Positions 2-22,160 of a DNA stretch of 38,122 bases are shown here, one piece after another. The position numbers were made by a program, and so were the translations under genes. The notes under the pieces are model-generated. The model ran no database searches. It was not told where the DNA came from and saw nothing but the letters and a program-made list of their open reading frames with translations. Source of the stretch: Elusimicrobia bacterium RIFOXYB2_FULL_49_7 (lineage in GTDB: Bacteria; Fibrobacterota; OXYB2-FULL-49-7); the NCBI GenBank assembly GCA_001800515.1, contig MGVN01000115.1:28980-67101 (forward strand). The letters are read 5' to 3'. The number at the start of each line of letters is the position of its first letter. Position 1 is the first letter of the stretch.

Positions 2-3000
2 ACACCCTTTTCCCTTTTCCCGGTTTCCAACGCCACCTTAAGCCCCACACAGTATCTCCATTGGCGGGCAACCGACGGCGACTCTCTGGGCCTGACCCCG
101 GATACCCTGCATTACACGGTAGTGGTCGACAACAATGCGGACTTCTCCAGTCCCATCGGCACCACCGTCAACATCACAGCCGACAGTATCCGTATTGATC
201 AACTCACTAATCACAATAGCATGCTGGACAATGTGCAATATTATTGGAAGGTAGCAGCCACGGACAACCACGAACTCCAGGGCATTTTTACCTCGGGCAA
301 TGAATCGTTCTGGTTCAACAGTGTCAATAACCCGCCTCCGACACCCTCATCGCTCCGACCCCTCGCGGGCGGCACAGTCCATCCTTCGGACAGCCTGAAA
401 TGGACCGCAGGATTGGATGCGGATCCTTTCGATACCACCACTTTTGTCATTGAAATAAGTCTTACTTCAAATTTCAGCATCCTCCTCTCATCGGACACGA
501 CTCGCTCCTCTTTTGTGATCCTGAACCGTTTGCCGAATTATCGTCTTTTGCAAGACAACACCATCCTTTACTGGCGGGTGCATGGCATTGATCAATCGGA
601 CGTCAGTTCGGGCTTGGCGGGCGGAGCATTGCAGACTTTAACCTATCGATCCACTGCTCCGGCTCTACCGGTTGCTTGGTCTCCACCGAACAATGCCATT
701 TTCTATCCTTCGGAGCAGCTCTCTTGGACCGCCAGTATTGATGCGGACGCCGGATTGGAAGATACTCTATATTATGTGCTGGCATTAAGTTTGGTTTCTG
801 ATTTCAGTACTTTGTTGTCAACAGACACCTCCGTAGACACCTTCCGAACCATTGAGGAACTCGACGGTTATTCCCTTTTTCCGAACAACGCACAATATTA
901 CTGGCGCATGCGCACCGTAGACAACCACCGCACTCAAAGCGCCTGGAGCAACGGATTCAACTTCATCCTGAACAAATCCAATCAGCGCCCGCCGGAACCG
1001 GTTATCCTTTCTCCGGTAGATACGGCCGTGGCAGACTCCTCTTCCCGGTTTGTCTGGCACCGGTCAATTGATGCGGACCCGGGCAACACCGTTACCTATT
1101 CCTTACTCATCGGATCCGATTCTCTTTTGTCGGACACCCTTGTCCAAGTCCAAAACCTTGCGGACACGGCCTTTACCCTGGACAGCCTTCTGCACATCAA
1201 CCTGCGCATGGCCACCCTGACCGATGATCACTTCTACTACTGGGCCGTGGCAGCCAAAGACAATCATCAGGCCCTTTCCTCTTTCAGTGCAATCGGTTAC
1301 TTTTTCGCCAATCTGGCCAATGATACGCCTGCAGTTCCCGTTTCCTTGCAACCCTCCTTCGGCGCGTTGGTCTTTCCAACCGAATACCTGCGCTGGTATG
1401 CCGGTATTTCGGATGAATTTCGCGACACGTCACGATATATCATCCAAATGGCACGCGATTCGCTTTTCACAGACCTGTTGATTGTAGGCGATACGGTAAC
1501 AGCAGATACGGCGGTCCGATTGTCCTCTCTGACCCATTTCGGAGCTCTGCCCAATGAGGTCTATCTTTTCTGGCGGGTAGCAGCCGTTGATCAAGCCGGA
1601 CTGACTCACGGTTTTTCCGCTGATGCTAAAATTTTCTTCAGTCTGTCCAATACGGCACCCTCGATCCCCTTAAATCCGCTCCCCAGCGACTCCTCGGTCA
1701 CGGTTTATCCCTCCGGTGAGTTCACCTGGACTGCCAGCACGGACCCGGACCATGATTCCATTGAGTATGAAGTCTGGATCAGCAGCACCCCCTTTAACGA
1801 TACCACGGACAGCCTGTCCGTGACCGCACGTATCCGGGGGATCAACGATTCCCGCGTGGTATTGAACACCTTTTCCATCGGGTATGAACAGCTTCGACAC
1901 CATGACGCCTACTATTGGCGCGTACGGGCCTATGACGAACATTTCACCTCGTCAAACTGGTCCCTCCTGAAGTCCTTCCGTTTTGCTTCCACCCCCCCTA
2001 CTCTTGTATCTGTTGTTTTTCCGCAGGATAGTACCACACTCAAGATTTCCGATTCCATTGGATGGTCATCTTCATCGGATGCGGATGCGGGTCCATTGGA
2101 CTCTCTACGTTATGAAATCACGGTGGACAATGAAGATGACTTCCTGTCACCGGCTTCCGTGGATACCTTGGTGTCGGACACCGTCGTCACCTTACGCGAC
2201 CTGCGCGGAGTGGATAGTCTGCAAAACGACGTTTATTATTTCTGGCGGGTACGCGCTCTGGACGTTCACGGTGCAGCCGGTGATTATTCCGGAAGCGGTC
2301 TTTTCTTTTTCAACCGCACCAATACACGACCCGATCAGCCGAACACATTGTATCCTTCCTCATCCGTTCCGATCCTATCGTATCGTGCCTTCCAAACCCT
2401 TCGATGGATTGGAACGGATCCGGACAAGGACGACATCCTTTCCTTCCGCGTGGAAATCTCAAGGGACAGCACCTTTGGAACCCTCGTGCTGGCAGCCAAT
2501 GGTTGGGACACTTCGGCGATCCGATTATCCGATTTCGCTCATTTTGCGCAGCGATTAATTGACGATTCGCTCTATTTCTGGCGGGTACGCGCTCAAGACC
2601 AACAGGGTGTGGTATCCGGTTCTTCGCTTCCGGGACGGTTCATTTATGATGCCGTGGATGACCAGGCTTCTTCGCCCGTCATTGTCACGCCCGCCATTGG
2701 CGGATATATGGTCTCCGCTTCGAGCTTGTCCTGGAAAAACAGCACGGACGCCGACGACACGCTGATCATTTACAGAGTAAGCGTGTCGTCCGACTCCCTT
2801 TTCACCCGGATGGTAGCGGAAAACAGCGCTGTTTCCAAAAGCTCGGATTCCATCACCTCCCTCCTTCTCTCCGCATTGTCCGGAAGCGACACCTTGACTG
2901 AAGGTCACCTTTATTACTGGTGCGTGGTCCCTTATAGTATGACGGATAGCGGCTGGGTAGCCGGAGAACCTTCCTCCACCATGAAATTTTGGGTGGGCCG

Positions 3001-3970
3001 TTCCGCCATTTTCTATGATCCCCGAGTCGCTTCCCTGTCCGTGGTCACCCCAACAGGGCTCACCGACACGGCCAATATCATCCGATCTCTGGGTCATGAT
3101 CTGGTCATTGCCTTTGCGGACAGTACCGTCACCCGACCCGTGTGCGTTGAAATCACCCGTATTCCCGTTCAGGGTTCCCTGGGCGGCGCTTATCTTGAAC
3201 TATCGGACTCAGCGAATCGCGCCATTCAGAAGAAAGTCATCGACGCGGATCGGTATGTCCTCGGAGATAAACACATGGTGCGCGTAGGCGAGCCGGTTTT
3301 CTCCATTCGCGCCTTTGATCTGGATCATCCGGACCGGGCCGCCACCCTTGAAAAATCGGTACTTCTGCAATTCGCCTGTCATGACACTAATCAGGACGGT
3401 TATGCGGACCAAACCCCGCAAGGTGTTCGTATCCCGCTATCCGCATTCTCCATTTTCCGGCTGAATGAAAAAACCGGCCGTTGGGAACCCGTTTCTTCAA
3501 GCCGGGACAGCTCCACCGAATCGCAAAGCACGCCACTGATGAAAGCATTTCGACAGAAACAAATCGTGTCCGACCCACGTGTTGTCCGCGCCCTGACTCC
3601 CCATTTCAGTATTTATACGGTCATGGCCTATCAACAGGCTCAAAAACCGTTCGAGGACTTCAAGGTCTTTCCCAGCCCCTTTCTCCTCTCATCTAACGGA
3701 AATCCGGTCACTCTTCAATATTATCTGAGCGAAGAGGCCGATATCCTGATTCAGATTTACAGCAAGACCGGCGGGCTGGTTTTTGAAAAGCGCATTAAAA
3801 AAGGCGCTGTCGGCGGCCGTGCCAATACGGTGCCTACCGAGATTCACTGGAACGGCCGCAATCAGGCCGGCCGTTTGGTCGGCAACGGCGTCTATATCGT
3901 TAAAGTCATCGCAAAACCTTCAAGCGGGGGTGAATACACCTCGACTCAGTATTTAGGAGTGGTCAAATGA
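2..3970 (+). CDS. Giant secreted FN3-like repeat protein with FlgD-like C-terminal domain (5' truncated)
   Basis: The reading frame is open from base 2, so the gene starts before the window; the GTG at 122 is an internal codon. The visible part (about 1320 residues) has nine modules of roughly 105 residues. Each ends in a strand like YYWRVRAxD and begins with an acidic motif such as SIDADPG or STDPDHD. After the modules come a beta-rich region containing DTNQDGYAD, which resembles a calcium-binding loop, and a last segment of about 100 residues. That segment (VFPSPFLLS, then IHWNGRNQAGRLVGNGVYIV) fits the FlgD-Ig/CHU-type C-terminal fold seen on secreted FCB proteins. It is probably a surface or extracellular adhesin-like scaffold; the ligand is unknown. 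Its stop overlaps the next start as ATGA, so it is cotranscribed with the PorV-TPR gene. The repeat architecture is secure, the role is not. Confidence 0.85.
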   Translation, partial: TPFSLFPVSNATLSPTQYLHWRATDGDSLGLTPDTLHYTVVVDNNADFSSPIGTTVNITADSIRIDQLTNHNSMLDNVQYYWKVAATDNHELQGIFTSGNESFWFNSVNNPPPTPSSLRPLAGGTVHPSDSLKWTAGLDADPFDTTTFVIEISLTSNFSILLSSDTTRSSFVILNRLPNYRLLQDNTILYWRVHGIDQSDVSSGLAGGALQTLTYRSTAPALPVAWSPPNNAIFYPSEQLSWTASIDADAGLEDTLYYVLALSLVSDFSTLLSTDTSVDTFRTIEELDGYSLFPNNAQYYWRMRTVDNHRTQSAWSNGFNFILNKSNQRPPEPVILSPVDTAVADSSSRFVWHRSIDADPGNTVTYSLLIGSDSLLSDTLVQVQNLADTAFTLDSLLHINLRMATLTDDHFYYWAVAAKDNHQALSSFSAIGYFFANLANDTPAVPVSLQPSFGALVFPTEYLRWYAGISDEFRDTSRYIIQMARDSLFTDLLIVGDTVTADTAVRLSSLTHFGALPNEVYLFWRVAAVDQAGLTHGFSADAKIFFSLSNTAPSIPLNPLPSDSSVTVYPSGEFTWTASTDPDHDSIEYEVWISSTPFNDTTDSLSVTARIRGINDSRVVLNTFSIGYEQLRHHDAYYWRVRAYDEHFTSSNWSLLKSFRFASTPPTLVSVVFPQDSTTLKISDSIGWSSSSDADAGPLDSLRYEITVDNEDDFLSPASVDTLVSDTVVTLRDLRGVDSLQNDVYYFWRVRALDVHGAAGDYSGSGLFFFNRTNTRPDQPNTLYPSSSVPILSYRAFQTLRWIGTDPDKDDILSFRVEISRDSTFGTLVLAANGWDTSAIRLSDFAHFAQRLIDDSLYFWRVRAQDQQGVVSGSSLPGRFIYDAVDDQASSPVIVTPAIGGYMVSASSLSWKNSTDADDTLIIYRVSVSSDSLFTRMVAENSAVSKSSDSITSLLLSALSGSDTLTEGHLYYWCVVPYSMTDSGWVAGEPSSTMKFWVGRSAIFYDPRVASLSVVTPTGLTDTANIIRSLGHDLVIAFADSTVTRPVCVEITRIPVQGSLGGAYLELSDSANRAIQKKVIDADRYVLGDKHMVRVGEPVFSIRAFDLDHPDRAATLEKSVLLQFACHDTNQDGYADQTPQGVRIPLSAFSIFRLNEKTGRWEPVSSSRDSSTESQSTPLMKAFRQKQIVSDPRVVRALTPHFSIYTVMAYQQAQKPFEDFKVFPSPFLLSSNGNPVTLQYYLSEEADILIQIYSKTGGLVFEKRIKKGAVGGRANTVPTEIHWNGRNQAGRLVGNGVYIVKVIAKPSSGGEYTSTQYLGVVK

Positions 3971-6255
3971 ACATGAAACCATTGACAATCATCTTAGGCG
4001 TCGCTCTGGCACTACAGCTCGCGCAAGCCCAAGACTATGGGCTGCCCGGAGACTACCTCTTGGAATTATATCCCAGCGCCCGAGCCTTGGCCATGGGGGG
4101 AGGATCGGTTGCCGCCTGCGACAATTCAGACGCGCTTTTCCTGAATCCGGGCGCGCTCGGCCAATTGACATACTCGGAATTCGCCGCACTTTACCAGCGA
4201 ATGTTCGAGGGTCTGCATTATTACACCTCCGCTTTTGCTTATCCCATGGGACGCATGGGCGTCCTGGGTATGGGAGTCATCGGCACCACTTCTCCCGAGA
4301 TTCCGGAAATTGACAGTTGGGGAATCAAACACGGCACCTACCGCACCGGCGACAACAGCGTTCTGCTTTCCTATGGCCGGAAATTAGGCCGGTTCGGAAG
4401 CGTGGGCGGTTCCCTAAAAATGGCCACCCAGACCGTGGACACTTATTCCGGTATGGGCGTCGGGTTTGATGTGGGCGGGGTCTGCCTTCCCTTACCCTGG
4501 CTGTCGCTCGGAGCGGCCCTATTCAATCTCGGCGGACCCACGCTTCGCCTGAATAAGACGGACGAATCCTTTACCACGGCCTTTCGTTCCGGTGCGGCCC
4601 TACATCTTATGAAGGAGAGATTGACGCTCTACGGAGACATCGATATTCTGGATCTCTTGGCAACACAGGATGACTATTCCGGAACCGCTTCTTATCCGAT
4701 CCGGTGGCGAAGCGGAGTCACGTTTTCTCCCTTCCCTTACCTGGCCCTGTCGGCTGGTGTGAACGACCGCATGATAACCGGCGGACTCGGCTTCACGGTA
4801 CGTAACATTTCAGCGGACTACGGACTGGGCTATCACCGGGATGGAAGTGATCTTAATCTGGGTTTTACTCACGCCTTTTCCCTCCGCTTTCCCTTCGGCA
4901 AACCGGTTCCGCAAATCGAGGAGGATCTGGCTCAAAAAACCCGTGAGGTGGAAAGCCGCCGCAACCTCCAGGAAGGCCAACAGCTTTATATCCGGGGTTT
5001 TCACGGAGAGGCACGGAAACTCATCAGCACCTATGTCTCCGCCCATCCGGAGGATAAAAATGCCGCCGCCCTTTTGGCCGAAGTCGAAGGAAAACTGGCT
5101 TCCGGTGAAGTGGACCATCTGGTCACGAGTGCGGAAAAGGAGATGGGCAAACGTAATTATGCGGAGGCAGACAATCTGCTTTCGCAGGCCATCAGCCTAT
5201 TGCCGTCCCATGAGAAAGCAAACCAACTCAAACAGAAGCTCCTTATGCTTTCCGGAAACGCGGAACGGGTGGAACATATCAAATCCCTTTACGCGAAAAA
5301 TAAATATGAGGAAATGGCTAAGGAGCTTGATGTCGTTCTTTCTCTTGATTCAACCGATGCAGGAGCACTGGAATACCGGTCCAAAATCTCGGCTTTCCTG
5401 AACCAGCGCGAAGCGGACAAACATTACAATGCGGCTTCCAAGTGCTATTATGAAGAGAAGAATACGGAAAAAGCGAATACCGAACTCCAACAGGCGCTGG
5501 CCCTGAAACCGGATCATAAAGAAGCGCTTGTCCTCTATGAAAAAATCAGCGGCGAAGTCAAAGCACTCTACCTGAAAAAGGTCGGACAAATGGTGGATGC
5601 CAAAGGTCTTTCTGTGGACAATCAGGATCTGAAGAAACTGATTCAACTCGACGTGCAGGATCGGTTGGTGAATACACGCAAGCTCCTGGATGCCGGCCAA
5701 ATCGCCCCGGCCCTGGCAGAGGTGGACGCCATCCTACGCGAAAATCCGGACAATACGGAAGCCAAGACACTGAAGGCCAAGGGCTTGGCGTTCCAGGAAG
5801 CGGACAAGGCAATGATGCTCTACAATGAAGCCTTGAAACTTCTGAATGACAACAAATTGGCTGATGCGGAAGCCAAAGCTGCGGAAGCGCTGCAACATGA
5901 CGCCGGGAACCAAAAGGCCAAAGGGTTACTGGATGACATCCGTCTGAAACAGCGACGCGAGAATCTGGATGCCGCAGAAAAGAAAATGGCAAGCGGCAAA
6001 CGTGAAGATTTGGAAAGTGCGCGCAAAATGGTTGAGGATTACATCGCTGTGGACAGTGAAAATGAACGTGCACAAAAACTCCTGAAGGATATTCAAACCG
6101 ATCTTTACGTGTCGGACGCCAACCTGCTGATCGATAAAGGAGAATATGAAAAGGCGGACCAGATGATTCAGAAAGCGCTGCAGGCTAATCCGGATAATAA
6201 AAAAGCACAAGACGCCTTTAAAAATCTTCGGGAGGCCATGGATGCCCTGCAATAA
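3967..6255 (+). CDS. PorV/PorQ-like outer-membrane barrel fused to TPR repeats
   Basis: The 762-residue product starts with a signal peptide (cleavage likely after AQAQ, residue 22). Residues 35-64 match the PorV/PorQ (UPF0164) N-terminal pattern: YPSARALAMGGGSVA, then a DALFLNPG motif. A glycine- and aromatic-rich beta-strand region continues to about residue 315. From about 330 to the end it becomes helical TPR-like repeats (AEADNLLSQAI, NTELQQALALKPDHKEAL, EYEKADQMIQKALQANPDN). PorV proteins act with the type IX secretion system at the outer membrane and usually end after the barrel, near 330-400 residues, so the long TPR tail is an unusual fusion. It would face the periplasm and could bind partner proteins. 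The start overlaps the upstream stop by 4 bases. Barrel assignment is by pattern only. Confidence 0.8.
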   Translation: MNMKPLTIILGVALALQLAQAQDYGLPGDYLLELYPSARALAMGGGSVAACDNSDALFLNPGALGQLTYSEFAALYQRMFEGLHYYTSAFAYPMGRMGVLGMGVIGTTSPEIPEIDSWGIKHGTYRTGDNSVLLSYGRKLGRFGSVGGSLKMATQTVDTYSGMGVGFDVGGVCLPLPWLSLGAALFNLGGPTLRLNKTDESFTTAFRSGAALHLMKERLTLYGDIDILDLLATQDDYSGTASYPIRWRSGVTFSPFPYLALSAGVNDRMITGGLGFTVRNISADYGLGYHRDGSDLNLGFTHAFSLRFPFGKPVPQIEEDLAQKTREVESRRNLQEGQQLYIRGFHGEARKLISTYVSAHPEDKNAAALLAEVEGKLASGEVDHLVTSAEKEMGKRNYAEADNLLSQAISLLPSHEKANQLKQKLLMLSGNAERVEHIKSLYAKNKYEEMAKELDVVLSLDSTDAGALEYRSKISAFLNQREADKHYNAASKCYYEEKNTEKANTELQQALALKPDHKEALVLYEKISGEVKALYLKKVGQMVDAKGLSVDNQDLKKLIQLDVQDRLVNTRKLLDAGQIAPALAEVDAILRENPDNTEAKTLKAKGLAFQEADKAMMLYNEALKLLNDNKLADAEAKAAEALQHDAGNQKAKGLLDDIRLKQRRENLDAAEKKMASGKREDLESARKMVEDYIAVDSENERAQKLLKDIQTDLYVSDANLLIDKGEYEKADQMIQKALQANPDNKKAQDAFKNLREAMDALQ

Positions 6256-6769
6256 GCGACACCTCATTCGTCACCCCTTTTTCCTTGCTTTAGCGACATG
6301 GCTCTTAGGGGTCATCCTCCCGGCGATTGCACAACCGGACGACATAAATGATTTCGTTAAAAGCACTTTTTGGCCCAATGATTCCGTCTCGGTGGTTGAA
6401 AACAACACGGTCGAAATTCTGCGGGATGTCAGTGACGCCTACCTGGCCACACGCCCCACGACAGGCAACGGTTTTTTTCAGAATTTCGTCCTGCTTCATG
6501 CTTTTTCCACCCTGTCCGGCCCGCAAACCAAGCTGCTTTTCGACCGTTTTCCGGAAATCACCAAGGTTCGTCTGGTTCTTTTATTCCGAAAACCGGGCAT
6601 GGCCGTTCCTGTTGTTGCAGCCAAGGTACGCATCAATCGAGCCACCTTTGATTCCGCCCCCTTTCTAACCACGGTGACACTGAAACAAAAGTCGCCCGAA
6701 TCTTTTCTAACCAAAGCAAAATCCGTATTTGATGCAGTCTGGATGAATGACATTCTGAAAAACGAATAA
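6242..6769 (+). CDS. Small secreted protein of unknown function
   Basis: This 175-residue protein has an N-terminal signal peptide (HPFFLALATWLLGVILPAIAQ, cleavage near residue 30) and no lipobox cysteine. The mature part, about 145 residues, mixes helix and strand and has no motif I recognise. The ATG lies inside the end of the TPR gene (14-base overlap) behind a GGGAGG ribosome site, which supports this start. It is the third gene of the operon, between the PorV-TPR and the first STAS membrane protein, so a periplasmic partner is plausible but unproven. Confidence 0.75.
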   Translation: MPCNKRHLIRHPFFLALATWLLGVILPAIAQPDDINDFVKSTFWPNDSVSVVENNTVEILRDVSDAYLATRPTTGNGFFQNFVLLHAFSTLSGPQTKLLFDRFPEITKVRLVLLFRKPGMAVPVVAAKVRINRATFDSAPFLTTVTLKQKSPESFLTKAKSVFDAVWMNDILKNE

Positions 6770-6780
6770 AGGTAAACCCG

Positions 6781-7734
6781 ATGAACTTTAAAATCGAACA
6801 AAAAGAACAATACCTCTTGATCCGGTTTTCCGTTGAAGACGAACCGGCGCAGCCGCTGTCCATTGCGCTGACCCCCTTTCTGAACAAGGCCAATCTCTTT
6901 ACGGCTTTTGACTTCTCGACCGTCCGAAAACTGGATCTCAAATCCCTGAGTCTTCTGGAACCGGCGTTGCAAGCAGTCTGGAAAACAGGCCGCAAAGCGG
7001 CCCTCTGTGGAGCGGACCCATCCATGCTCAAGGTGCTCGACGCGGCCGGTCTGCTTCTGAACACCGTAACGTTTCCGGACATCGCCTCTCTGGAGAAAAG
7101 TTTGGCCGACTTTCTCAAAAAATCGCAGCCGACACAAAAAGAAAAGCCTTCGCCCTATGATGAACGCCTACAGACGAAACCTCATGATTGGAAGAATAAC
7201 CTGTCCCTTGCACCCCATATCCAGACCCTCGCTCTCTGCCTTCTCCTGGTTCTTCTCATAGGCGGTTTCCTGAAAACCCGTTCACTGCAACATCAGCTTG
7301 ATACGGTAACCATTGCCCTTTCGCATGTCCGTACGGTTTCCGATTCGCTTCGGCTGAAAGAGCAGAACCAGTCGGCCGAAGAGGCCATTCTCCGGGAATT
7401 GGAACTCGCAACCGCCTCTTCTTCCTCGGCAGAAAGCACCCCTTCCACGGTCGGCATGGAAACGGCCGAATACGACGCAGCCAGTCGCGCGGTCCGTTAT
7501 GCAGGAAAAGATTTCCTTCAGGCCCAGGAACAATATCGGGCAACCCACGGAAATTATGCGGCCGATGCAAAGGCCCTTTCCTTTCAACCCTCTGATCCGA
7601 ATATCCGATTGGAATCCGTATCCCTCTCAGCAGATAAAGAAACCGCTTCCATCATCCTCTCTACCCGGACTCCTCACGGACGTCTGTTAAAGTGGAATAT
7701 CGACACCCATCATCGATGGAAAGCCATACCCTGA
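6781..7734 (+). CDS. STAS domain - transmembrane - coiled-coil protein with pilin-like tail
   Basis: The 317-residue product begins with a STAS-like fold (about residues 1-115; the strand AFDFSTVRKLDLKSLSLLEPAL sits where STAS proteins carry DxSxxxxIDSSG). A charged linker follows, then one membrane helix at about 147-168. A coiled coil and a Ser/Ala-rich linker come next. The C-terminal domain from about 240 (FLQAQEQYRATHGNYA) resembles the helix-to-sheet join of type II/IV pseudopilins. With no signal peptide, the STAS part should be cytoplasmic and the tail periplasmic. The usual phosphorylatable serine is not conserved. The gene is 11 bases downstream of its neighbour with an AAAGG ribosome site. 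The layout parallels the gene at 10593, suggesting paralogues. The STAS call is moderately sure and the pilin-like call is weak. Confidence 0.7.
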   Translation: MNFKIEQKEQYLLIRFSVEDEPAQPLSIALTPFLNKANLFTAFDFSTVRKLDLKSLSLLEPALQAVWKTGRKAALCGADPSMLKVLDAAGLLLNTVTFPDIASLEKSLADFLKKSQPTQKEKPSPYDERLQTKPHDWKNNLSLAPHIQTLALCLLLVLLIGGFLKTRSLQHQLDTVTIALSHVRTVSDSLRLKEQNQSAEEAILRELELATASSSSAESTPSTVGMETAEYDAASRAVRYAGKDFLQAQEQYRATHGNYAADAKALSFQPSDPNIRLESVSLSADKETASIILSTRTPHGRLLKWNIDTHHRWKAIP

Positions 7735-7756
7735 CAGAACAGCAAGGAGCATAAGT

Positions 7757-9112
7757 ATGCAAAATTTTTTATCAGTCTTCATCCCCGTGTTTGCGGTCTT
7801 AATCGGCTTTTCACCGGCCATCAGCCAAAATGATTTGGAGGATATGTACCTTCGAAAAGCAGTGAAAGAATTCGTGGCCAAGCAATATGATGAGGCCGTT
7901 ACGGATCTGGAACAGGTATTAACCGTCAACAAAAGCAACGCAAAAGCAAAAAAACTGCTTTCAAAATGTCTGGAGCGCAAGGCAACCAGTTGTTTGGCTC
8001 AAAATCAGCTGTCCGAAGCGGATCGTCTGATTAAACAAGCTCTGTCCTACGATCCTCAAAATGCGGACGCCATACGGGACCTGGAACAATTAAACAGCTT
8101 GGCCCAGCTGGTAAAGCCCGCACCAACGGCAGCCCCTCAGGGAGGTGCATCAACGGTCGCCTCGCAACCCTCCCTTTCCGGCTATCCGACAACAACAGGC
8201 CCATCCATGCCGCAGCAGATTGTCATTTCCACCCCTGCCGCAGCGGCCGACACCCACCAAACACGGGTCATTTCAGCCCTGCTTCAGAATTTCAACAAAC
8301 AGCAGGACATCATGTCCCAGCAAGTGACCGCGAGCAGCAAAATGATGATGAAAACGGAAGACGATAAGGAAAAGTATCTTCAAGCCCTGGTCCAAAGCGC
8401 TAATCAAAAAAGCGACCTGCTGAAAAATTTCATGGTCATCGGCGGCGGCATTCTCTTGGTTGTCATTCTGATCATTGTGGGTATCTTTTTCTTTGTGTTC
8501 CACAAATTCTCAAGGTCCGCAGAACTTCGGACTCTCCAGGCCACGGACACCATTGCTGCACTCTTATCCGCCCCGGGCGCATCTCAGGGTGGAGGCCATC
8601 CCCTGCTCATCGGCGCGCCTCGGCCGGGCCAGTCCTCGTCTGAAGGCATCCGAACCGTGACCATGGAAGAGCTCAGCACCAAGGATCCCGTCCAACGGGC
8701 ACAGGCCGTGGAAGCGGTGGCTGCGGAAATAATCGAACCGGCAAAAAACCAGCGCATGGAAAAAATCAAGCGGCTCGAGGAACTTCTCAAGGACGACAAC
8801 AACCGGGTGCGCGCCAATGCAGCCAAGGCACTCTATGAGATAGACAAAGAAGCCTCCCTCAATACCCTCCGAGAAATGCTTGAAAGCGAGAGCAAACGGA
8901 TGCGGGCCAGCGCAGTCTGGGCTTTGGGAGAGATTGGAGCCGAGGAATCCTTGGACTTGATTACGGGTGTCAATCACGAAGATGATGAAATCGTGAAATA
9001 CAATACCAAAGTGGCCCTGGAAAAAATACGAAACCTGAACCGCTTCCATATCAGCAAAGAACAACTCGATAAGTTGGATGAAAAATTGGCCCAATATGCG
9101 GACATGGCATAA
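7757..9112 (+). CDS. TPR - transmembrane - HEAT-repeat protein
   Basis: This 451-residue protein has a signal peptide or N-terminal anchor (residues 1-24). Two or three TPR-like units follow (about 28-115: KAVKEFVAKQYDEAVTDLEQ, QLSEADRLIKQALSYDPQN). A Pro/Ala/Gln-rich linker and a polar region lead to a strong membrane helix at about 225-247. The C-terminal part (about 333-430) contains HEAT-type helices (VRANAAKALYEI, MRASAVWALGEIGAEESL). Topology would put TPRs outside and HEAT repeats in the cytoplasm, so it could bridge the periplasmic TPRs of the PorV fusion and the cytoplasmic DnaJ/STAS/GrpE proteins. A good AAGGAG site precedes the ATG. Both repeat families bind proteins, and no catalytic motif is seen. 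Confidence 0.8.
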   Translation: MQNFLSVFIPVFAVLIGFSPAISQNDLEDMYLRKAVKEFVAKQYDEAVTDLEQVLTVNKSNAKAKKLLSKCLERKATSCLAQNQLSEADRLIKQALSYDPQNADAIRDLEQLNSLAQLVKPAPTAAPQGGASTVASQPSLSGYPTTTGPSMPQQIVISTPAAAADTHQTRVISALLQNFNKQQDIMSQQVTASSKMMMKTEDDKEKYLQALVQSANQKSDLLKNFMVIGGGILLVVILIIVGIFFFVFHKFSRSAELRTLQATDTIAALLSAPGASQGGGHPLLIGAPRPGQSSSEGIRTVTMEELSTKDPVQRAQAVEAVAAEIIEPAKNQRMEKIKRLEELLKDDNNRVRANAAKALYEIDKEASLNTLREMLESESKRMRASAVWALGEIGAEESLDLITGVNHEDDEIVKYNTKVALEKIRNLNRFHISKEQLDKLDEKLAQYADMA

Positions 9113-9136
9113 ATCCTTCTTGAAAGCGGTGATAAA

Positions 9137-10591
9137 ATGACTTTTTATGAAGTTTTAGGCGTTCCAGAAAACGCCACGGACAGTGACATCAAGTCCGCTT
9201 ACCATAAACTGGCCATCAAATGGCACCCGGATAAAAACCGGGAACGTCCTGATGCAGCGGAAAAGTTTAAGGAAGTCACCCGCGCCTATGAAACTTTGCG
9301 GGACAGTGAACGCCGTAAGAAATACGATATCGAAAGAACGGCGCCCCCCCCTCCCACCGCGGGTTCCCGACACCCTTTCGGCCAGCGCGACAACGGAGAA
9401 TCCCGATCCTATGATCTGGCCGACGCCTTGCGCATCTTCATGATGAATATGCGCGGCGATACCGGCTTACGAGAGTCCTTTTCACGCGACACGACCGCTT
9501 TTGAACCGAGTCAGGGCGCTAATATCCAAATCCACATAACACTGGAACTGTCGGAAATCGCGGCCGGTTGCCAAAAGACCATTAAAATTACCCATAAAAA
9601 GAAATGCGCTTCCTGTTCAGGGAAGGGGGTTACCTCGGAAAAAGCGGTACTGCTCCCTTGTCGACAATGCAACGGACACGGTATCGTACGCGTGGTCGGC
9701 CGGGCGGACACGATTCAATGTACGGCCTGTTCCGGATCCGGTAAAGAACTGAAAGATCCCTGTCCCACCTGTTCCGGCACCGGCCAAACAAAAGGTGAAT
9801 CATCCATTAATGTCAAGTTTCCAAAAGGCATCGCAGCCGGTAATTATCTGATCTTAAGCGGCCTGGGGGATGCAGGTCTCCGGGGTGGAAAAACAGGTGA
9901 TCTTCTTATCTTCATCGACGAAAAGGAGAACAACCGCTTCAAACGCCGCGGCATCCATCTCGAAACAGATACGGAAGTGCCGGTCCTGACCGTCATTTTG
10001 GGCGGCAAAGCATCCGTCACCACACTGGATGGAGAGCTTCGGCTCTTTCCGGTCAACCCCGGCACTCAGCCGGAATCCCTTTACAGTATCAAAGGACAGG
10101 GACTGCCCCAATATAACGGGCCCGACATGGGAGATTTGTTTGTGCGTCTGCACGTCCGCATACCGGAACACCTTTCCGCAGAGGAAAGGCGGACCTACGA
10201 AATCATTGCATCCGGTTCGCTGACCGCTGCAAAGACAACCCCCTCATCGGATAATCTGAACAATACGCCCTTAATCCGACAAACGGAAAAAGGGTGGATG
10301 CTCTTTATTGCAGACAAGGAATTTCCCCATGATTTTTTCCAGCAGCCCGAAGTATTCGAACTGCTGGAAAAACAAAATACCACCATCGGACTCGATCTCC
10401 GCGCCGTCGTCATGATCGACAGCCTTGCCATCGGAAAGCTGATCCGGGCATTGAAACAGACGAAAAAGAACAACACAGATTTCTTTCTTTTCGGCATCCA
10501 GAAATCGATTCGGGAAATTCTCAAGGAAACCAATCTCCTTTCATTATTCAAAATAACGGACCAGGAAGAAAGCTTGACTCAGGTGTCCTGA
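9137..10591 (+). CDS. DnaJ-type co-chaperone with C-terminal STAS domain
   Basis: The 484-residue product has an N-terminal J domain (1-65) with HPD at residues 30-32. It has a reduced linker rather than a long Gly/Phe region, and four intact zinc-binding CxxCxGxG repeats ([32 protein letters not shown]). The DnaJ substrate-binding domains follow to about residue 355. Ordinary DnaJ ends near 370-380. Here about 100 more residues form a STAS-like domain ([19 protein letters not shown]). J proteins stimulate the ATPase of DnaK-type Hsp70 and deliver clients, while STAS domains act as protein switches. The usual second serine of the STAS DSSG motif is leucine here. It sits one base upstream of another STAS gene and just before a GrpE-like gene, but no dnaK is visible. 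The J and zinc parts are certain and the STAS part very likely. Confidence 0.93.
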
Positions 10592-10592
10592 T

Positions 10593-11282
10593 ATGTCACA
10601 TAACATCATCCGCATCCTCAAAGAGGACAACATGTCTTCGCTCAAATCCCTCTACGGCGAGGTGGAGCGGTTCATCGCCGGGCCCAAGAAGAATGCCGGT
10701 TTTGATTTATCTCAACTCTCCATTCTTCGTAGCGAACAAATCGGCGTACTTGTCAAGGCCGTTCGTGGGGCGGAAAATAAACATGGACGGATCATCGTCT
10801 TAGCCTCAAATCATGCTCTATTGGAGATTTTGCGGGCCATTGATTTGGACAAAAAGGCCGTCATCGTACAGAATGCTCAAGCTTTTAAGGCCGCACTTGA
10901 AGAGCAAGACCCTTGCACCCCGTCCTCTTCCTTTGTTCCATCCGCCACACAGATCAAACCCGGATCGATAAAATCAACGGACCCTGTTGCCCCGCTTCAT
11001 TCGACATCCGTACCGTCCACGGATAAAAGAGCCCGCCTGGGTCTGTTCGTTATTTCCGGTCTCCTGCTGCTGTTTCTCTTGACCGCCCTTCTCATTTTCT
11101 TTCTTCAATATCGTGCCAACGCCGTCATTACCCAACAAACCCTGGAAACCAAGACGCGCTTGGAATGTCAAGTCGACAGCCTTTCCTTGATCATCAATCA
11201 ATACCGGGAAGAGGAAAAGCTGTTGAAAGAAATCGGCCTGGATGGCCGGACAAAGGGAGCCTCCCATGACGGAAAAAAGTGA
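10593..11282 (+). CDS. STAS domain - transmembrane protein
   Basis: The protein has 229 residues. Residues 5-105 look like a STAS fold: an initial strand NIIRILKE, then FDLSQLSILRSEQIGVLVKAV at the usual switch loop, then GRIIVLASNHALLEILRAIDL. The phosphorylatable serine pair of SpoIIAA-like proteins is absent. A Ser/Pro-rich linker leads to one membrane helix at about 148-170 and a short coiled coil (TKTRLECQVDSLSLIINQY). The STAS part should be cytoplasmic. An in-frame ATG at 10632 has a better AGAGG ribosome site, but it would remove the first STAS strand, so I kept 10593. The gene follows the DnaJ-STAS gene with a one-base gap and overlaps the GrpE-like start by 17 bases. It is probably a paralogue of the gene at 6781. 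Confidence 0.75.
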   Translation: MSHNIIRILKEDNMSSLKSLYGEVERFIAGPKKNAGFDLSQLSILRSEQIGVLVKAVRGAENKHGRIIVLASNHALLEILRAIDLDKKAVIVQNAQAFKAALEEQDPCTPSSSFVPSATQIKPGSIKSTDPVAPLHSTSVPSTDKRARLGLFVISGLLLLFLLTALLIFFLQYRANAVITQQTLETKTRLECQVDSLSLIINQYREEEKLLKEIGLDGRTKGASHDGKK

Positions 11283-11757
11283 TCTGACCCTACAGGACAT
11301 CGACTGGAAAAACCTGTATGATATTCTGACCGAACGCTATGAAGGCCTGGAAAATACTTTCTTGGAAAGCCGACATGGTCATCAGCGCTCCCTTAAGGAA
11401 GAACGTACTAAAATAAAAAAGCAGCTTATCGGCCGAATGTGTTTGATCGCAGACAATGTAGCGCACCTTAAGACCTCCGTCGAAGCAGGTCATGACCTGA
11501 ACCGTGTGGCAGAAGGCATCCGACTAATTGAACGGGAGTTTTTGGAATTTCTGAAAAATGAAGAAGTGACTCTTATCGTCTCTCAGCCCCGCGATAAATT
11601 CAATCCTTTTGAACATGATGCCTTTGATATGGAAGCTTCCAGCGATATACCGGAAGGTTACATTGTACGTGAAATTCAAAAAGGATATAAAATCGAAGGC
11701 ATATTGCTCCGCCCCGCCCGGGTAATCGTTTCCTCCGGCGCACCCAAATCGGCATAG
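11266..11757 (+). CDS. GrpE-like nucleotide exchange factor
   Basis: The chosen ATG at 11266 gives 163 residues and has AGGGAG upstream; an in-frame ATG at 11242 would add only eight residues. The C-terminal half carries GrpE hallmarks: a FNPFEHDAF segment matching the family's FDPxxHEA, then IVREIQKGYKIEGILLRPARVIV matching its GY-x5-LRPAxV signature. The N-terminal half is a charged helix, as expected for the GrpE dimer. GrpE releases ADP from DnaK. This copy differs from housekeeping GrpE (divergent N-terminus, EGILL for the usual DRVLR), and its neighbours are DnaJ-STAS and STAS-membrane genes. It may serve a specialised Hsp70 outside the window. It is the last gene of the operon. Confidence 0.85.
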   Translation: MTEKSDLTLQDIDWKNLYDILTERYEGLENTFLESRHGHQRSLKEERTKIKKQLIGRMCLIADNVAHLKTSVEAGHDLNRVAEGIRLIEREFLEFLKNEEVTLIVSQPRDKFNPFEHDAFDMEASSDIPEGYIVREIQKGYKIEGILLRPARVIVSSGAPKSA

Positions 11758-11984
11758 CCGTATTGAATCAAAGTTCTCATTCACCCGGTTGGAGCGGGTC
11801 TGCTCCAGACTGGGAGTCACGAATAATCCAACATTTCGGCCATCCAGCCAATGAGCCCAAGCCAAGGAGAGGCTTCGACTCTCATCCTGTCGTTTTCCAT
11901 CCAGATAATACCGTTTAGTCAATCTGCCTTCCAGAACAAAGCGGTCGTTCGCCAACATGCTTTTTAAGCGGAGCCCACGTTCCT
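11750..11984 (-). pseudogene. Possible remnant of an outer-membrane barrel gene
   Basis: The 404 bases between the GrpE-like gene and the histidine kinase hold no clear gene. On the minus strand, one frame open from 11982 downwards reads as alternating polar/hydrophobic strands (RFVLEGRLTKRYYLDGKRQD, then LSLAWAHWLDGRNVGLFV). This is reminiscent of the last strands of a barrel. It is preceded by an in-frame stop and runs antisense into the GrpE-like gene, so it cannot be a full gene. A short plus-strand frame (11957-12148, charged and helical) overlaps it and has no ribosome site. I read this stretch as decayed or recombined coding sequence, with low certainty about strand and family. Confidence 0.3.
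11784..11814 (+). terminator. Stable stem-loop after the DnaJ/GrpE operon
   Basis: A 12-base-pair stem with one bulged G (CCCGGTTGGAGC pairing with GCTCCAGACTGGG across the loop GGGTCT) starts 27 bases after the GrpE-like stop. No U-tract follows, so it is not a classical intrinsic terminator. It may protect the 3' end or mark a factor-dependent stop. Confidence 0.3.
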
Positions 11985-12161
11985 ACAATGCGGTCCGAGA
12001 CCGTAAGGAAACGGTTGAGGCAGACGATACGCTGGAAGATACGCGTCAGGAAAAGACGCTGGAAAAATTAATCGCCGTGGAAGAAGGAGAACGACTACAA
12101 GAAGCGATGGGCCGCTTCCGGCTGTCCGGAATGGCGAGGTCGGCATAAAGGGAAATAAGAA

Positions 12162-13526
12162 TCATGAGATTGGCAGGGTGAACCAAAACGTGGTTCCCCG
12201 GCCCACGGTTGAATCAATCCATATTCTTCCGCCATGTTTCTCCACGATTTTTTTGCAGACAGCCAGGCCAATCCCTGTCCCTTCGTATTCTTCCCGCGTA
12301 TGCAAACGCTGGAAAATCTGGAACACTCTCTCCTGATGTGCAGAGGCAATACCAATCCCATTGTCTTGAATCCCGAAAATATAATTGGTCTCGTCACGTT
12401 TCACGAGAATATGAATCTCGGGCGTCTTGTCCTTGCAGAATTTTAAGGCATTTCCAATAAGATTCTGAAACAACTGGATGAGTTGACCTTCATTGGCCAT
12501 AATCGTTGGGAGAGAATCCGATATAATCTTGGCCTGTTTGTCTTGAATGGCGATTTCAAGATTTTTCATCGCTTTATTGAGGACCGTTTCGCATTGTATT
12601 GCCGTAAAAGGCATGTGACCTGCCCCAATCCTCGAATAGGTAAGCAAATCCGTGATCAGGTTCTGCATTCGAGTCGCTCCGTCCACGGCAAAAGCGATGA
12701 ATTCATTGGCATCGGAATCAAGTTTGTCTTTATAACGTTTTTCTAACAATTGAAGATAACTCGCAACCATCCGAAGTGGTTCGCGTAAGTCATGAGAGGC
12801 GACATAGGCAAATTGCTCTAATTCGGTGTTCGATTGTTTCAGTTTAATCTCGATCCGGTTCTTTTCGGCAATCTCTTTCATAAGGTTGTTTTCGGCCTTT
12901 TCAACCCGCTCAAGCTCTTTTTTGATGGCTATCGTAATATTATATTCATTTAAACGGGCGGAATTAAAACTTCTGACCAGTCCATAGGATATCGCCAACA
13001 TGGAATAAAAGTGTATGATTATACGAATATGATCTTTGTCAACAGTATCCCGGAATGTTAAAATGATACCCGTTAATGCGACGGCAATAATGAACGTGTT
13101 TATGTTCAACAGCTTTTTGGTCGGCAGTAAAAAGAAAAAAGAGAGAACAACAGCCATATAGTAACCGATGACATACGAAGAACTCAAATTCATGAAGAAT
13201 GAAAGAATGACAACCGGACAAATAAGAGCCAATAAGCAGCAGCTGGTTACCCAATGATACGCCTTGCTGAAAGTGTTGTCCTTCAATAAAAACCTGGCAA
13301 TAAAGGAGCCAAACAACAGGACGCTTGCGGTCCCCAATCTTATTTTCAGAAATAACGCTCTTACGTCGGGAGGGTCCGTGAATGTCAGCGAAATATAAAA
13401 AAAAGCACCGATGATGATAACAACAAATAAAGATTTTCGTGCCCTGGAGAATACAAACGCGTCATAGCTGTCAAGATTCTGCTTTGCGGGTGTTTCCAAT
13501 ATAACACCGGTCTTTTTGCGTTCCAT
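12162..13526 (-). CDS. Membrane-bound sensor histidine kinase
   Basis: The 454-residue product has six predicted membrane helices in the first 200 residues. A coiled coil follows (about 205-240), then a HisKA domain with phospho-acceptor His245 in ASHDLREPLRMVASY. The HATPase_c domain carries the N box NLIGNALKF (near 355), G1 DNGIGIA (near 388) and G2 GTGIGLAVC (near 416). All catalytic motifs are intact. The H-box type (ASHDLREPLR) is that of phytochrome- and hybrid-type kinases. No receiver domain or response-regulator gene is visible, so its output partner is elsewhere. The start is only 10 bases downstream of a secreted propeller protein, suggesting cotranscription and perhaps a shared signal. 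The ribosome site is weak. Confidence 0.93.
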   Translation of the reverse strand: MERKKTGVILETPAKQNLDSYDAFVFSRARKSLFVVIIIGAFFYISLTFTDPPDVRALFLKIRLGTASVLLFGSFIARFLLKDNTFSKAYHWVTSCCLLALICPVVILSFFMNLSSSYVIGYYMAVVLSFFFLLPTKKLLNINTFIIAVALTGIILTFRDTVDKDHIRIIIHFYSMLAISYGLVRSFNSARLNEYNITIAIKKELERVEKAENNLMKEIAEKNRIEIKLKQSNTELEQFAYVASHDLREPLRMVASYLQLLEKRYKDKLDSDANEFIAFAVDGATRMQNLITDLLTYSRIGAGHMPFTAIQCETVLNKAMKNLEIAIQDKQAKIISDSLPTIMANEGQLIQLFQNLIGNALKFCKDKTPEIHILVKRDETNYIFGIQDNGIGIASAHQERVFQIFQRLHTREEYEGTGIGLAVCKKIVEKHGGRIWIDSTVGRGTTFWFTLPIS

Positions 13527-13536
13527 ACCAGATGCC

Positions 13537-22000: not shown

Positions 22001-22154
22001 GCGCCAGGATATTATTTCCGGTGGGACAGTTTGTTTGTATCCATGCGCCATAAACATTTAATGTCATGACAAGTGCCATTACCGGACACATCATCCAACA
22101 TAAGGGATGCCATGATTGCAATAGCGATCGGCGGATTTTTGTCGAGTGGGCCAT
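16023..22154 (-). CDS. Giant secreted protein: Asp-box propeller, 17 FN3 modules, T9SS-like sorting domain
   Basis: The product has about 2043 residues. After a signal peptide, six or seven Asp-box/BNR units (SSDNGSTWTEI, SKDNGTTWLSA, SNDDGNNWTAL; to about residue 315) form a likely propeller. Seventeen FN3-type modules follow, each with a conserved strand like YYWRVNATNAGGTS-WS and an ATSYxLQVSTDSTF segment. The C-terminus (about 100 residues, NAQPNPFNPTTRI to GAGTYIYRMEA) fits the Por/T9SS type A sorting domain, so the protein is probably exported by T9SS and attached to or shed from the surface. The GAGGAGG site at 22161-22167 places the start at the ATG at 22154 rather than the upstream TTG at 22169. 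The gene stands alone and is divergent from the glycerate kinase gene. Adhesion or glycan binding is likely by architecture only. Confidence 0.92.
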   Translation of the reverse strand: MAHSTKIRRSLLQSWHPLCWMMCPVMALVMTLNVYGAWIQTNCPTGNNILALAANGSNLYAGLYSAGVYLSSDNGSTWTEISDGLPDNTTVYALLPYNANLYAGTYGKGVYLSKDNGTTWLSANNGLPSNATVTVLSVMASHLIAGTYAKGIYTSADEGGTWTASSTGLPVNQTINAITISGTTVFIGVESGIYRSSDDGATWSAACTGLPGNVIVNGLTALGSTIYAGTNGGGVYYSNDDGNNWTALNSGLSSSASILSMSAMTADVFIGLVGAVYHNNGTSWSAVNSGLSSSYSVLSMTATGGYLFIGTNSGVWRSPLPPVAPSYFIPADKSTNQDDSLTLSWSSVTSATSYSVQVSTDSTFSSSIAFSKTGLTLSSQVVTGLTNNTVYFWRVNASNNGGTSAWSVKNQFITTLLSPTPASPTDGAIHQATTLNLSWNAVATADSYGLQVSTDSSFSNSIVYSQLGLTNTSQTVNGLANNKTYYWRINASNSGGTSHWSRHSRFTTIVAVPDSPILSSPSDRTNDLGCSLSLSWNSVATAVSYSLQVSTDSLFSSGVVSNQSGLTATTYALSGLTHYTTYYWRVSASNIAGTGKWSSVYSFSTVLAAPTLSFPSTGATGLAIAPTLSWNTVSFATVYSLQISNDSTFSASIVYSRTGLTAPSHTLSMNLSNNTTYYWRVNAGNATSVSAWSTKNTFTTIIALPQAPILISPYNQATNQSVSPSLSWNVVSTATAYTLQVSTDSTFAGSMICNQSGLTATSQTVSGLSYTTLYYWRVSATNSAGTGSWSVVNGFTTILKAPSLVAPGNGALGQAVSLDLQWNAVATASSYALQVSTDSTFSVSLFFNQSGLTDTAQRISGLSNNTIYYWRVKAINPGGASDWSARYRLTTLLAAPVPISPLDKSTNQAVSLTLKWNTVTSATSYGLQVSTDSTFSTSMTYNQNGLTTSSQTISALANSTSYFWRVNATNAGGTSVWSDIFHFSTVLAAPSLVSPATGATAQPTTLTFSWNTVSAASSYTLQVSTVSTLTTYVYNQSGIASTSQAVEGLSNNTVYYWRVSASNTGGASAWSTAYKLTTLIAPPAAPVLASPLNSAIGQAVSLSLKWYASTSATSYGLQVSTDSTFATGFVCNFSGLTLLYQALSGLSNNTVYYWRVNATNAGGISHWSDFNRFTTVTLVPPAVPTLSIPANNTVNQSLSPMLSWMTSSSATSYSLQVSVDSIFSGTYVYNQNGLTSIAQTITGLLNNRVYFWRVNASNANGTSSWSTPYRFMTMIGSPELNRPLNGVLGQPLALELEWGAVSAATSYHLQVSTDSTFAKTIFYSQAGLTGLSQTLSGIANNTKYYWRVSATNPNGTGNWSSVHNFTTVIGSPIPALPVNSSVNQAVSLKLSWNTVPTATSYGVQISQDSTFTGPMTYGQVGLTTAYLTLSGLSANTTYYWRVNAANAGGTGEWSVAFHFTTLPAAPVPVSPVNNALNQPLLLTLKWNPAESATAYSLQVATDTVFLTSVMVNLSGLTVLEQNISGLANNKTYYWRVCATNLNGTGNWSSKYAFTTRISAPTPVSPSNNATNQTTSLKLSWNTVATATSYGIQVSSDSTFAVSVVYGQTGLSVANQTVTGLLYSTTYYWRVNATNAGGTSEWSAANSFRTATAAPVVISPINSVTQSVTFQWDTVQNATSYCLQVSTDSAFQSGVVFNQSGLSYTAYTITTLSAGMVYYWRVNATNATGTSIWSAMSRFTTISAPPTLLSPVDNATEIPVILTLKWSAEATALSYSVQVSTDSTFVTSSMNTLSANFIALSGLKNNTRYFWRVKTTNAGGTSYWSAVNRFTTIVTTPVAPTLSETAGGSLTITLSWDPVENATTYTLQISKDSLFSSVSIVYDENGIDTTFQTVSGLTGNVIYYWRVNATNAAGTSPWSSANFFEVQSTSAEAALLREIPESFMLGNAQPNPFNPTTRIMFAVPAKNKNGAGSRSASMQSIKINVYDIRGRWVITLVDGRFAAGYHYTQFNGQNSIGQLLGAGTYIYRMEAMGYVNARRLVLMK
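16385..21195 (-). repeat. 17 tandem FN3-coding repeats
   Basis: About 4.8 kb of the giant gene is a tandem array of modules averaging about 283 bases. Each encodes a diverged copy of one FN3-type unit. The best conserved DNA blocks encode the YYWRV strand and the QVSTDSTF strand. No two neighbouring units looked identical by eye, which argues for old duplications rather than recent expansion. Such arrays are prone to copy-number change and assembly collapse. Confidence 0.85.
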
Positions 22155-22160
22155 GAATTT

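What the first reader, a model, noticed from the sequence alone, without database searches (positions are those of the whole stretch)
3967..11757. Envelope-linked J-domain/GrpE/STAS operon without a visible DnaK
Seven tightly spaced genes (gaps of at most 24 bases, several overlaps) combine a PorV-TPR fusion, a small secreted protein, two STAS-membrane proteins, a TPR-membrane-HEAT protein, a DnaJ-STAS fusion and a GrpE-like protein. DnaJ and GrpE are known to serve Hsp70, and TPR/HEAT repeats bind proteins. The inference is a trans-envelope machine in which a specialised Hsp70 cycle, read out through STAS switches, controls an outer-membrane or secretion module fed by the giant FN3-like protein. 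I know of no described system with this set.
Basis: partly seen in the sequence, partly recalled or inferred. Interest (0 to 1): 0.85.

Follow-up and report, generated by a model that had tools for sequence, protein, structure and literature searches.

The report
Surface-protein operon with built-in Hsp70 helpers
Some bacteria of the Fibrobacterota carry an operon that joins a giant surface protein and proteins of both membranes to its own pair of helpers for the general folding machine Hsp70; the core of the set recurs in two distantly related genomes, which suggests an unrecognised way of building or controlling the cell surface.

Summary
Seven genes at 3967-11757, plus the giant FN3-like gene overlapping the first by 4 bases, form one tight run: PorV-TPR, small secreted protein, STAS-TM, TPR-TM-HEAT, DnaJ-STAS, STAS-TM, GrpE. 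Of 167 genomes of the phylum, two (G001, G044) hold relatives; both keep the order giant FN3 > PorV-TPR > TPR-TM-HEAT > J-protein. G001 also has STAS-TM and GrpE, abutting but inverted; G044 has neither there, and its J-protein has no Pfam-recognisable STAS. A fourth contig probably carries DnaJ-STAS with TPR-TM-HEAT.

The 'specialised Hsp70' is not supported: G001 and G044 each have one full-length Hsp70, in a grpE-dnaK-dnaJ run. The module most likely borrows it. The serine aligned with SpoIIAA Ser58 is kept in the STAS of DnaJ-STAS and the second STAS-TM, but not in the first STAS-TM or G044; no cognate kinase or phosphatase was found in the operon.

Best reading: a T9SS-linked surface-display module whose STAS-docked J-protein and second GrpE concentrate the DnaK cycle at the inner membrane. 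Linkage is shown; mechanism is inferred. No matching system turned up in the paper searches.

The parts
2..3970 (+). giant FN3/Ig-like protein, C-terminal 1322 aa (its start lies left of the window), FlgD-Ig-like C-terminus
   Evidence: Pfam Ig_Rha78A_N 5.2e-25, FlgD_ig 5.2e-4 below cut-off; 43% to the G001 and 30% to the G044 giant protein in the same place
3967..6255 (+). PorV/PorQ-like barrel fused to about 440 aa of TPR
   Evidence: NCBIfam PorV_fam 4.8e-21 over residues 32-309, below cut-off; TPR_19 4e-12; relatives in G001 (E 0) and G044 (2.0e-114)
6242..6769 (+). small protein with a hydrophobic, signal-like N-terminus, no known family
   Evidence: no tblastn counterpart in the G001 or G044 loci
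6781..7734 (+). STAS-like N-domain, one TM (about 146-164), C-terminal part of unknown fold
   Evidence: Pfam STAS 3.2e-4, below cut-off; TM; Leu at the Ser58-equivalent; no tblastn counterpart in the G001 or G044 loci
7757..9112 (+). hydrophobic N-terminus, TPR, one TM (about 230-248), HEAT repeats
   Evidence: family of 26 proteins, the window's own included, at E<=1e-10 in a database of 5.8 billion, 7994 candidates scored
9137..10591 (+). DnaJ (J domain with HPD, zinc fingers, DnaJ_C) fused to a C-terminal STAS domain
   Evidence: AF2 model matches DnaJ structures and, for STAS, TM1442 (1vc1_A E 1.6e-5, TMt 0.77)
10593..11282 (+). STAS-like N-domain, one TM (about 151-169), short C-terminal tail
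   Evidence: Pfam STAS_2 0.0077, below cut-off; TM; relative next to GrpE in G001 at 23%, E 3e-4
11266..11757 (+). second-type GrpE: C-terminal beta-domain signature kept, acidic N-terminus and AE[FLM][DE]N motif lost
   Evidence: Pfam GrpE 3.2e-25; alignment with 18 other GrpE proteins; G001 counterpart 33%, E 3.6e-21

Best explanation
The operon builds and serves a surface display apparatus. A giant FN3-like protein is exported by Sec and displayed by a PorV-like outer-membrane barrel whose TPR tail reaches into the periplasm. There it meets the periplasmic TPRs of g5, which crosses the inner membrane and presents HEAT repeats in the cytoplasm. DnaJ-STAS is held at that cytoplasmic face by its STAS domain, through STAS-TM partners and/or the HEAT platform. 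It recruits the ordinary DnaK, and the operon's own GrpE resets DnaK locally. The local Hsp70 cycle keeps the giant precursor export-competent, or assembles the inner-membrane platform. Shown: the genes, domains, order and conservation, and a single full-length Hsp70 in each of the two relatives. Inferred: topology, every protein contact, the client, and the direction of action.
For: Core order conserved in G001 and G044. The PorV-TPR and TPR-TM-HEAT searches hit the same 2 of 167 genomes and no others at the thresholds used (only the top 6 or 10 first-look candidates per genome were scored). P0002 (DnaJ-STAS) and P0156 (TPR-TM-HEAT) both list a longest contig of 41836 bases and are both named Fibrobacterota MAG proteins. 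HPD kept in 7 of 7 DnaJ-STAS-type rows. One full-length Hsp70 in each of G001 and G044, in a grpE-dnaK-dnaJ run. The G001 giant protein is a complete 2546 aa ORF whose N-terminus looks like a signal peptide by eye. PorV_fam is over cut-off in G001 (114.1 against 90). T9SS SprA is over cut-off in both relatives. The giant gene comes directly before PorV-TPR in 3 of 3 loci.
Against: GrpE and STAS-TM are missing at the G044 locus, and G044 has one GrpE match in all, so they are not needed everywhere. The G044 J-protein has lost two of four zinc-binding CXXC pairs and has no Pfam-recognisable STAS. A Sec-exported client would not normally need a J-protein of its own. A related giant protein in G167 has no such module. 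PorV and PorQ equivalog cut-offs are not met, and the TIGR04183 sorting signal was not reported. No contact between any two proteins has been tested.
Confidence: 0.4

Rival explanations
1. One reading: a trans-envelope signalling or force-transmitting machine in which phosphorylated STAS domains switch the Hsp70 cycle on and off, or the Hsp70 cycle sets the STAS state.
For: The SpoIIAA Ser58-equivalent is Ser in 6 of 7 DnaJ-STAS-type rows and in both g7-type rows; G001 and P0003 carry two STAS domains in tandem.
Against: The serine is not there in g4 or in G044; no SpoIIAB/RsbW kinase or PP2C phosphatase was hit in the operon; the Asp before the serine is not conserved among the DnaJ-STAS rows.
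Confidence: 0.2
2. A J-protein for assembling an adhesion or gliding apparatus, comparable in role to TopJ of the Mycoplasma terminal organelle: the giant protein is the adhesin and the Hsp70 cycle is needed to assemble or move the complex.
For: The N-terminus of the G001 giant protein matches AgmC_N, an adventurous gliding motility family (2.9e-36, 125.3 bits, below the cut-off of 275); a mutant of the TopJ orthologue in M. genitalium adheres but glides less (PMC4923136, passages read).
Against: No motor genes among the 28 window ORFs scanned; AgmC_N is also in G167 without the module; TopJ similarity is to the J domain.
Confidence: 0.15
3. A regulatory unit: the DnaJ-STAS and STAS-TM proteins act in sigma-factor partner switching, and Hsp70 changes expression of the surface protein in response to misfolding.
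For: STAS domains match anti-sigma-factor antagonists.
Against: No sigma factor, anti-sigma kinase or DNA-binding family was hit with confidence in the operon; two STAS proteins have a TM segment.
Confidence: 0.1
4. Unrelated neighbours in one operon by chance.
For: GrpE/STAS-TM inverted in G001 and absent at the G044 locus; g3 and g4 found in neither.
Against: The four-gene core keeps its order at 29-46% identity in three genomes, while PorV-TPR and TPR-TM-HEAT were found in only the same 2 of 167 genomes at the thresholds used.
Confidence: 0.05

Closest known systems
Type IX secretion system: PorV/PorQ proteins and the PorW/SprE TPR lipoprotein (PMC8754138, passages read)
   Same: PorV-like outer-membrane barrel; TPR protein linking outer-membrane and inner-membrane parts; giant secreted protein with an Ig-like C-terminus; SprA present in both relatives
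   Different: Barrel fused to a long TPR tail; an inner-membrane HEAT protein; J-protein, GrpE and STAS genes; SprA on other contigs than the operon; sorting-signal model TIGR04183 not reported; PorV and PorQ equivalog cut-offs not met
Housekeeping GrpE-DnaK-DnaJ
   Same: J domain with HPD, zinc fingers, DnaJ_C; GrpE beta-domain signature
   Different: No Hsp70 in the operon; STAS fused to DnaJ; separate branch from housekeeping DnaJ; GrpE lacks the AE[FLM][DE]N motif
TopJ, DnaJ-like protein of the Mycoplasma terminal organelle (PMC4923136, passages read)
   Same: J-protein tied to a surface apparatus
   Different: The match to the TopJ model is to the J domain; that TopJ lacks STAS, GrpE and PorV partners is recalled
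GAP1-N2 GTPase-centred conflict systems with HSP70 and GrpE (PMC7159879, passages read)
   Same: GrpE with FNIII, DnaJ and TPR domains in one neighbourhood
   Different: Those carry HSP70 and a GAP1-N2 GTPase; neither was hit here. Here the FN3-like protein is a giant surface-type protein and a PorV-like barrel is present
SpoIIAA/RsbV anti-sigma antagonists
   Same: STAS fold; Ser58-equivalent in g6 and g7
   Different: Fused to DnaJ or to a TM segment; no kinase, phosphatase or sigma factor hit in the operon
Myxococcus Agl/Glt gliding machinery (PMC3169522, passages read)
   Same: Trans-envelope set with TPR proteins; AgmC-like N-domain on the G001 giant protein
   Different: No motor genes among the 28 window ORFs scanned; the paper's text has 0 hits for DnaJ, DnaK and chaperone

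Membership tests
Hsp40/DnaJ | J domain with HPD motif | tested here: met
   HPD in 7 of 7 DnaJ-STAS-type rows; Pfam DnaJ 1e-26
Hsp40/DnaJ (housekeeping equivalog) | score over NCBIfam DnaJ_bact cut-off | tested here: not met
   TIGR02349 302.1 against 377.2 bits: a DnaJ-like paralogue, not the housekeeping equivalog
GrpE | Pfam GrpE over its cut-off | tested here: met
   89.1 against 25.8 bits; the 23 NCBIfam GrpE models listed are all below their cut-offs
Specialised Hsp70 system | an Hsp70 paralogue beside the standard DnaK | tested here: not met
   one full-length Hsp70 each in G001 and G044; the window's own genome is not held
PorV/PorQ family (NF033709) | score over 90 bits | tested here: inconclusive
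   window 75.7, G001 114.1, G044 81.1
T9SS PorV or PorQ (equivalogs) | score over the equivalog cut-off | tested here: not met
   PorQ 71.1, 59.8 and 43 against 220; PorV 34.6 against 250 in G001 and not listed for the others
Type IX secretion | SprA translocon in the genome | tested here: met
   over cut-off in both relatives, G001 with neighbouring pieces in the frame; cannot be tested for the window
Type IX secretion | cargo with a type A sorting domain (TIGR04183) | tested here: not met
   not reported for g1 or the two relatives; only weak FlgD_ig, CHU_C and PorU C-terminal hits
SpoIIAA-type STAS phosphoswitch | phosphoacceptor serine | tested here: inconclusive
   present in g6 and g7, absent in g4 and in the G044 J-protein; that Ser58 is the phosphoacceptor is recalled
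SpoIIAA-type STAS phosphoswitch | cognate kinase or phosphatase in the operon | tested here: not met
   Pfam scan of the eight genes
GAP1-N2 Hsp70 conflict system | HSP70 gene and GAP1-N2 GTPase in the neighbourhood | tested here: not met
   neither hit among 28 window ORFs scanned; whether Pfam has a GAP1-N2 model was not checked
AgmC gliding protein | NF047640 over 275 bits | tested here: not met
   G001 125.3 bits; the N-terminus of the window protein lies outside the window
Anti-phage defence (PADLOC) | specific model hits | tested here: not met
   one HEAT-repeat hit (6.8e-7) among 8 proteins

The most novel reading that the evidence does not exclude
A trans-envelope machine in which ATP turnover by the housekeeping DnaK, focused by a STAS-docked J-protein and a dedicated GrpE at the inner membrane, is coupled through HEAT, transmembrane and TPR links to a PorV-like barrel, and so powers or gates the assembly of a giant surface protein: a bacterial counterpart in logic to the mitochondrial J-protein/GrpE import motor (recalled), working outward and across two membranes.
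Probability: 0.15. Interest if true: 0.93.

Novelty: new variant of a known kind. Interest (0 to 1): 0.7.

Why it matters
Bacterial Hsp70 is usually treated as a general service with general co-chaperones. This operon ties a private J-protein and, in two of three loci, a private GrpE, with no private Hsp70 in the two relatives that could be checked, to one surface apparatus and to membrane proteins that could hold them in place. If right, it would show how a general ATPase can be borrowed for work at one spot of the envelope, and would make that testable with a handful of genes. It also defines two families without a name in the libraries searched, DnaJ-STAS and TPR-TM-HEAT, that serve as markers for the system.

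Tried and rejected
A first thought that the STAS types all lack the phosphoserine was wrong: alignment to SpoIIAA and TM1442 shows it kept in g6 and g7 and lost in g4, and it was corrected. A pilin-like reading of the g4 C-terminus was dropped: the AF2 model of the single sequence is poor (pLDDT 48.3) and Pfam gives STAS and one weak unknown family only. The G002 J-protein at C275 looks by eye like a CbpA-type gene in another context. An AgmC/gliding identity was not adopted (below cut-off; G167 has a giant protein of that kind without the module). Other phyla: 0 of 26 genomes at E<=1e-15 with A10; the tool notes that an empty answer there shows nothing. The genome-contig scan kept the best 80 of 184 relatives; in 79 of these 80 the DnaJ reading frame is 358-395 aa long, so without room for a STAS; the one longer frame (L034, 601 aa) runs through a stretch of N, an assembly gap. 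AgmC: none of the 15 papers listed, of 82, is about it by title and abstract. PMC12826045, which holds DnaJ, GrpE and STAS domain, is about indigoidine; its STAS mention is a reference title (passages read).

Limits: one search scored only 7996 candidates, crowded by ordinary DnaJ, so five DnaJ-STAS among the 120 listed (of 219) is an undercount; the G001 protein was not among the five. One search used E<=1e-60 and did not list the G044 J-protein of this cluster, which was found through its neighbours. In some searches only the top 6 or 10 candidates of the first look were scored in each genome. The tree used 68 rows: 7 DnaJ-STAS-type, 31 Fibrobacterota and 30 of the 80 loci; L128 is a long branch whose place is unsure. 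Completeness of the searched genomes is not given by the tool, and that the phylum is Fibrobacterota rests on the record title of L064 and recalled taxonomy. The PorV match in the PDB (E 0.0037, residues 3-87 only) is weak.
Full report
What is there. The seven ORFs are at the stated coordinates, and an eighth, the giant FN3-like gene ending at 3970, overlaps the first by 4 bases. Spacings are -4, -14, 11, 22, 24, 1 and -17 bases. All eight frames show coding-like codon usage, including g3, which has no family. Domain assignments are firm for the TPR part of g2 and for g5, g6 and g8; the barrel of g2 matches the PorV/PorQ family at 4.8e-21 but below its cut-off; the STAS domains of g4 and g7 are weak. 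The hydropathy script flags the N-terminus of g3 and g5 and one internal segment in g4, g5 and g7, and none in g1, g2, g6 and g8. The inside/outside assignments in this report are inferred from domain type, not measured. The consensus scan found 13 terminator-like sites (12.6 expected) and 14 promoter-like sites (7.2 expected, sd 2.7) in 3500-13000; I draw nothing from them.

Is it one unit elsewhere? Relatives of PorV-TPR (E<=1e-40) and of TPR-TM-HEAT (E<=1e-20) were each found in 2 of 167 genomes of the phylum, the same two, G001 and G044. In G001 (Chitinivibrionales bacterium PL23a_bin.29 by the title of L064), contig C33 reads giant FN3 (2546 aa), PorV-TPR, TPR-TM-HEAT and DnaJ-STAS-STAS on one strand, with 43, 43, 46 and 40% identity; abutting on the other strand are a STAS-TM gene (23%, E 3e-4) and GrpE (33%, E 3.6e-21). 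In G044 the order is giant FN3 (3136 aa), PorV-TPR, TPR-TM-HEAT and a J-protein, with 30, 29, 32 and 32% identity, and no GrpE or STAS-TM was found at the locus. The tblastn match of the G044 J-protein covers residues 2-357 of g6, not the STAS; Pfam finds no STAS in it. Its last 100 or so residues fall on the STAS columns in the multiple alignment, and calling them a degenerate STAS is my reading. It has also lost two of the four CXXC pairs. g3 and g4 have no tblastn counterpart in either locus. A fourth case is indirect: P0002 (DnaJ-STAS) and P0156 (TPR-TM-HEAT), both named as Fibrobacterota MAG proteins, both list a longest contig of 41836 bases.

How rare are the families? TPR-TM-HEAT: 26 proteins at E<=1e-10, the window's own included, in a database of 5.8 billion, 7994 candidates scored; two of them, P0177 and P0178, are distant (25%). 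DnaJ-STAS: five among the 120 listed of 219, an undercount. On a tree of 68 DnaJ rows the seven DnaJ-STAS-type rows form one side of a branch (support 100/98), apart from the housekeeping DnaJ of the same phylum and of others; G044's row is long and its place unsure.

Which Hsp70? G001 has one full-length Hsp70 (C123:67518-69305), between a GrpE (C123:66918) and its housekeeping dnaJ (C123:69548); its second PF00012 hit is a partial match in a 349 aa frame. G044 likewise has one (C45:13488-15272), between dnaJ (C45:12198) and its single GrpE match (C45:15422), and a partial match in a 353 aa frame. G001 has two GrpE matches, one in that run and one in this cluster. So in the relatives the private J-protein and GrpE have no private Hsp70, and the simplest inference is that they use the general one. 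Both operon-type GrpE proteins keep a C-terminal signature (F.P..H.A and GY.....LLRPA.V.VSSG) but lack the AE[FLM][DE]N motif seen in the 18 other GrpE rows compared; the J domain keeps HPD in 7 of 7 rows.

STAS. An AF2 model of DnaJ-STAS from five rows (mean pLDDT 64.3, pTM 0.34, 247 of 484 residues at 70 or more) matches DnaJ structures and, for its C-terminus, STAS protein TM1442; relative domain positions in that model are not reliable. The serine that aligns with SpoIIAA Ser58 (alignment; the number and its role as phosphoacceptor are recalled) is Ser in 6 of 7 DnaJ-STAS-type rows and in both g7-type rows, Leu in g4. No kinase or phosphatase of that pathway was hit in the operon. A phosphoswitch is therefore open, not shown; docking by STAS-STAS contact is as likely.

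Envelope side. PorV-family scores are 75.7, 114.1 and 81.1 bits against a cut-off of 90 for window, G001 and G044; the PorV and PorQ equivalog cut-offs are not met. A profile of the three reaches PorV of the Protein Data Bank at E 0.0037, over residues 3-87 only, which is weak. SprA is over cut-off in both relatives, on other contigs. The window and G044 giant proteins end in FlgD-Ig-like domains, below cut-off, with weak PorU C-terminal similarity and, in G044, CHU_C; no such hit was listed for G001. The G001 giant protein has an AgmC-like N-domain below cut-off; NF047640 matched 2 of 167 genomes, and the other, G167, has its giant protein without the module, so the module is not needed by every such protein.

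Mechanism. Taken together: a surface-type protein, an outer-membrane barrel with a periplasmic reach, an inner-membrane bridge, and a cytoplasmic co-chaperone pair that could be anchored at the membrane. The best-supported reading is a local Hsp70 cycle serving this apparatus. Whether it acts on the giant precursor, on the bridge, or in signalling cannot be told from sequence.

Literature. Searches with DnaJ, GrpE, STAS domain, Fibrobacter, PorV, HEAT repeat, type IX secretion and related words gave no description of this set (listings only, except that passages were read in PMC7159879 and PMC12826045). Passages were also read in PMC8754138, PMC4923136, PMC11205867 and PMC3169522. The library holds open-licence papers only.

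Verdict. The parts belong to known kinds and the combination is new in what I could search, hence 'new variant of a known kind', with a categorically new reading kept at 0.15.

Noticed in passing
window 16023-22169 (-): A second giant protein (2048 aa) of fn3/Ig repeats with a weak FlgD-Ig C-terminus, in the same window but without the co-chaperone module.
   Followed up: no
window 27171-29749 (-): BatD-like protein overlapping a TPR ORF with weak BatC similarity, suggesting a Bat-type cluster.
   Followed up: no
window 12162-15813 (-): Histidine kinase (12162-13526) and a two-component regulator propeller protein (13537-15813) just past the operon end. G001 also has what looks by eye like a sensor kinase near its cluster, at L117 2470-5772.
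   Followed up: partly
L143 from 10227, running into L144 (G167:C77): A 4195 aa giant protein with an AgmC-like N-domain and a C-terminus that by eye reads like a T9SS type A sorting signal, without PorV-TPR, HEAT or DnaJ matches on the contig.
   Followed up: partly
genomes: Several genomes besides G001 show two GrpE matches (for example G011, G019, G022, G030, G036, G085, G135, G144, G145); whether any has a system of its own was not checked.
   Followed up: no
P0177, P0178: Two more distant TPR-TM-HEAT proteins (25% identity) of unknown origin, which may belong to a related system in another phylum.
   Followed up: partly
window 16023-22169 (-), residues 771-807: An NCBIfam IS66 TnpA match over its cut-off inside FN3 repeats, probably a false call.
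   Followed up: no
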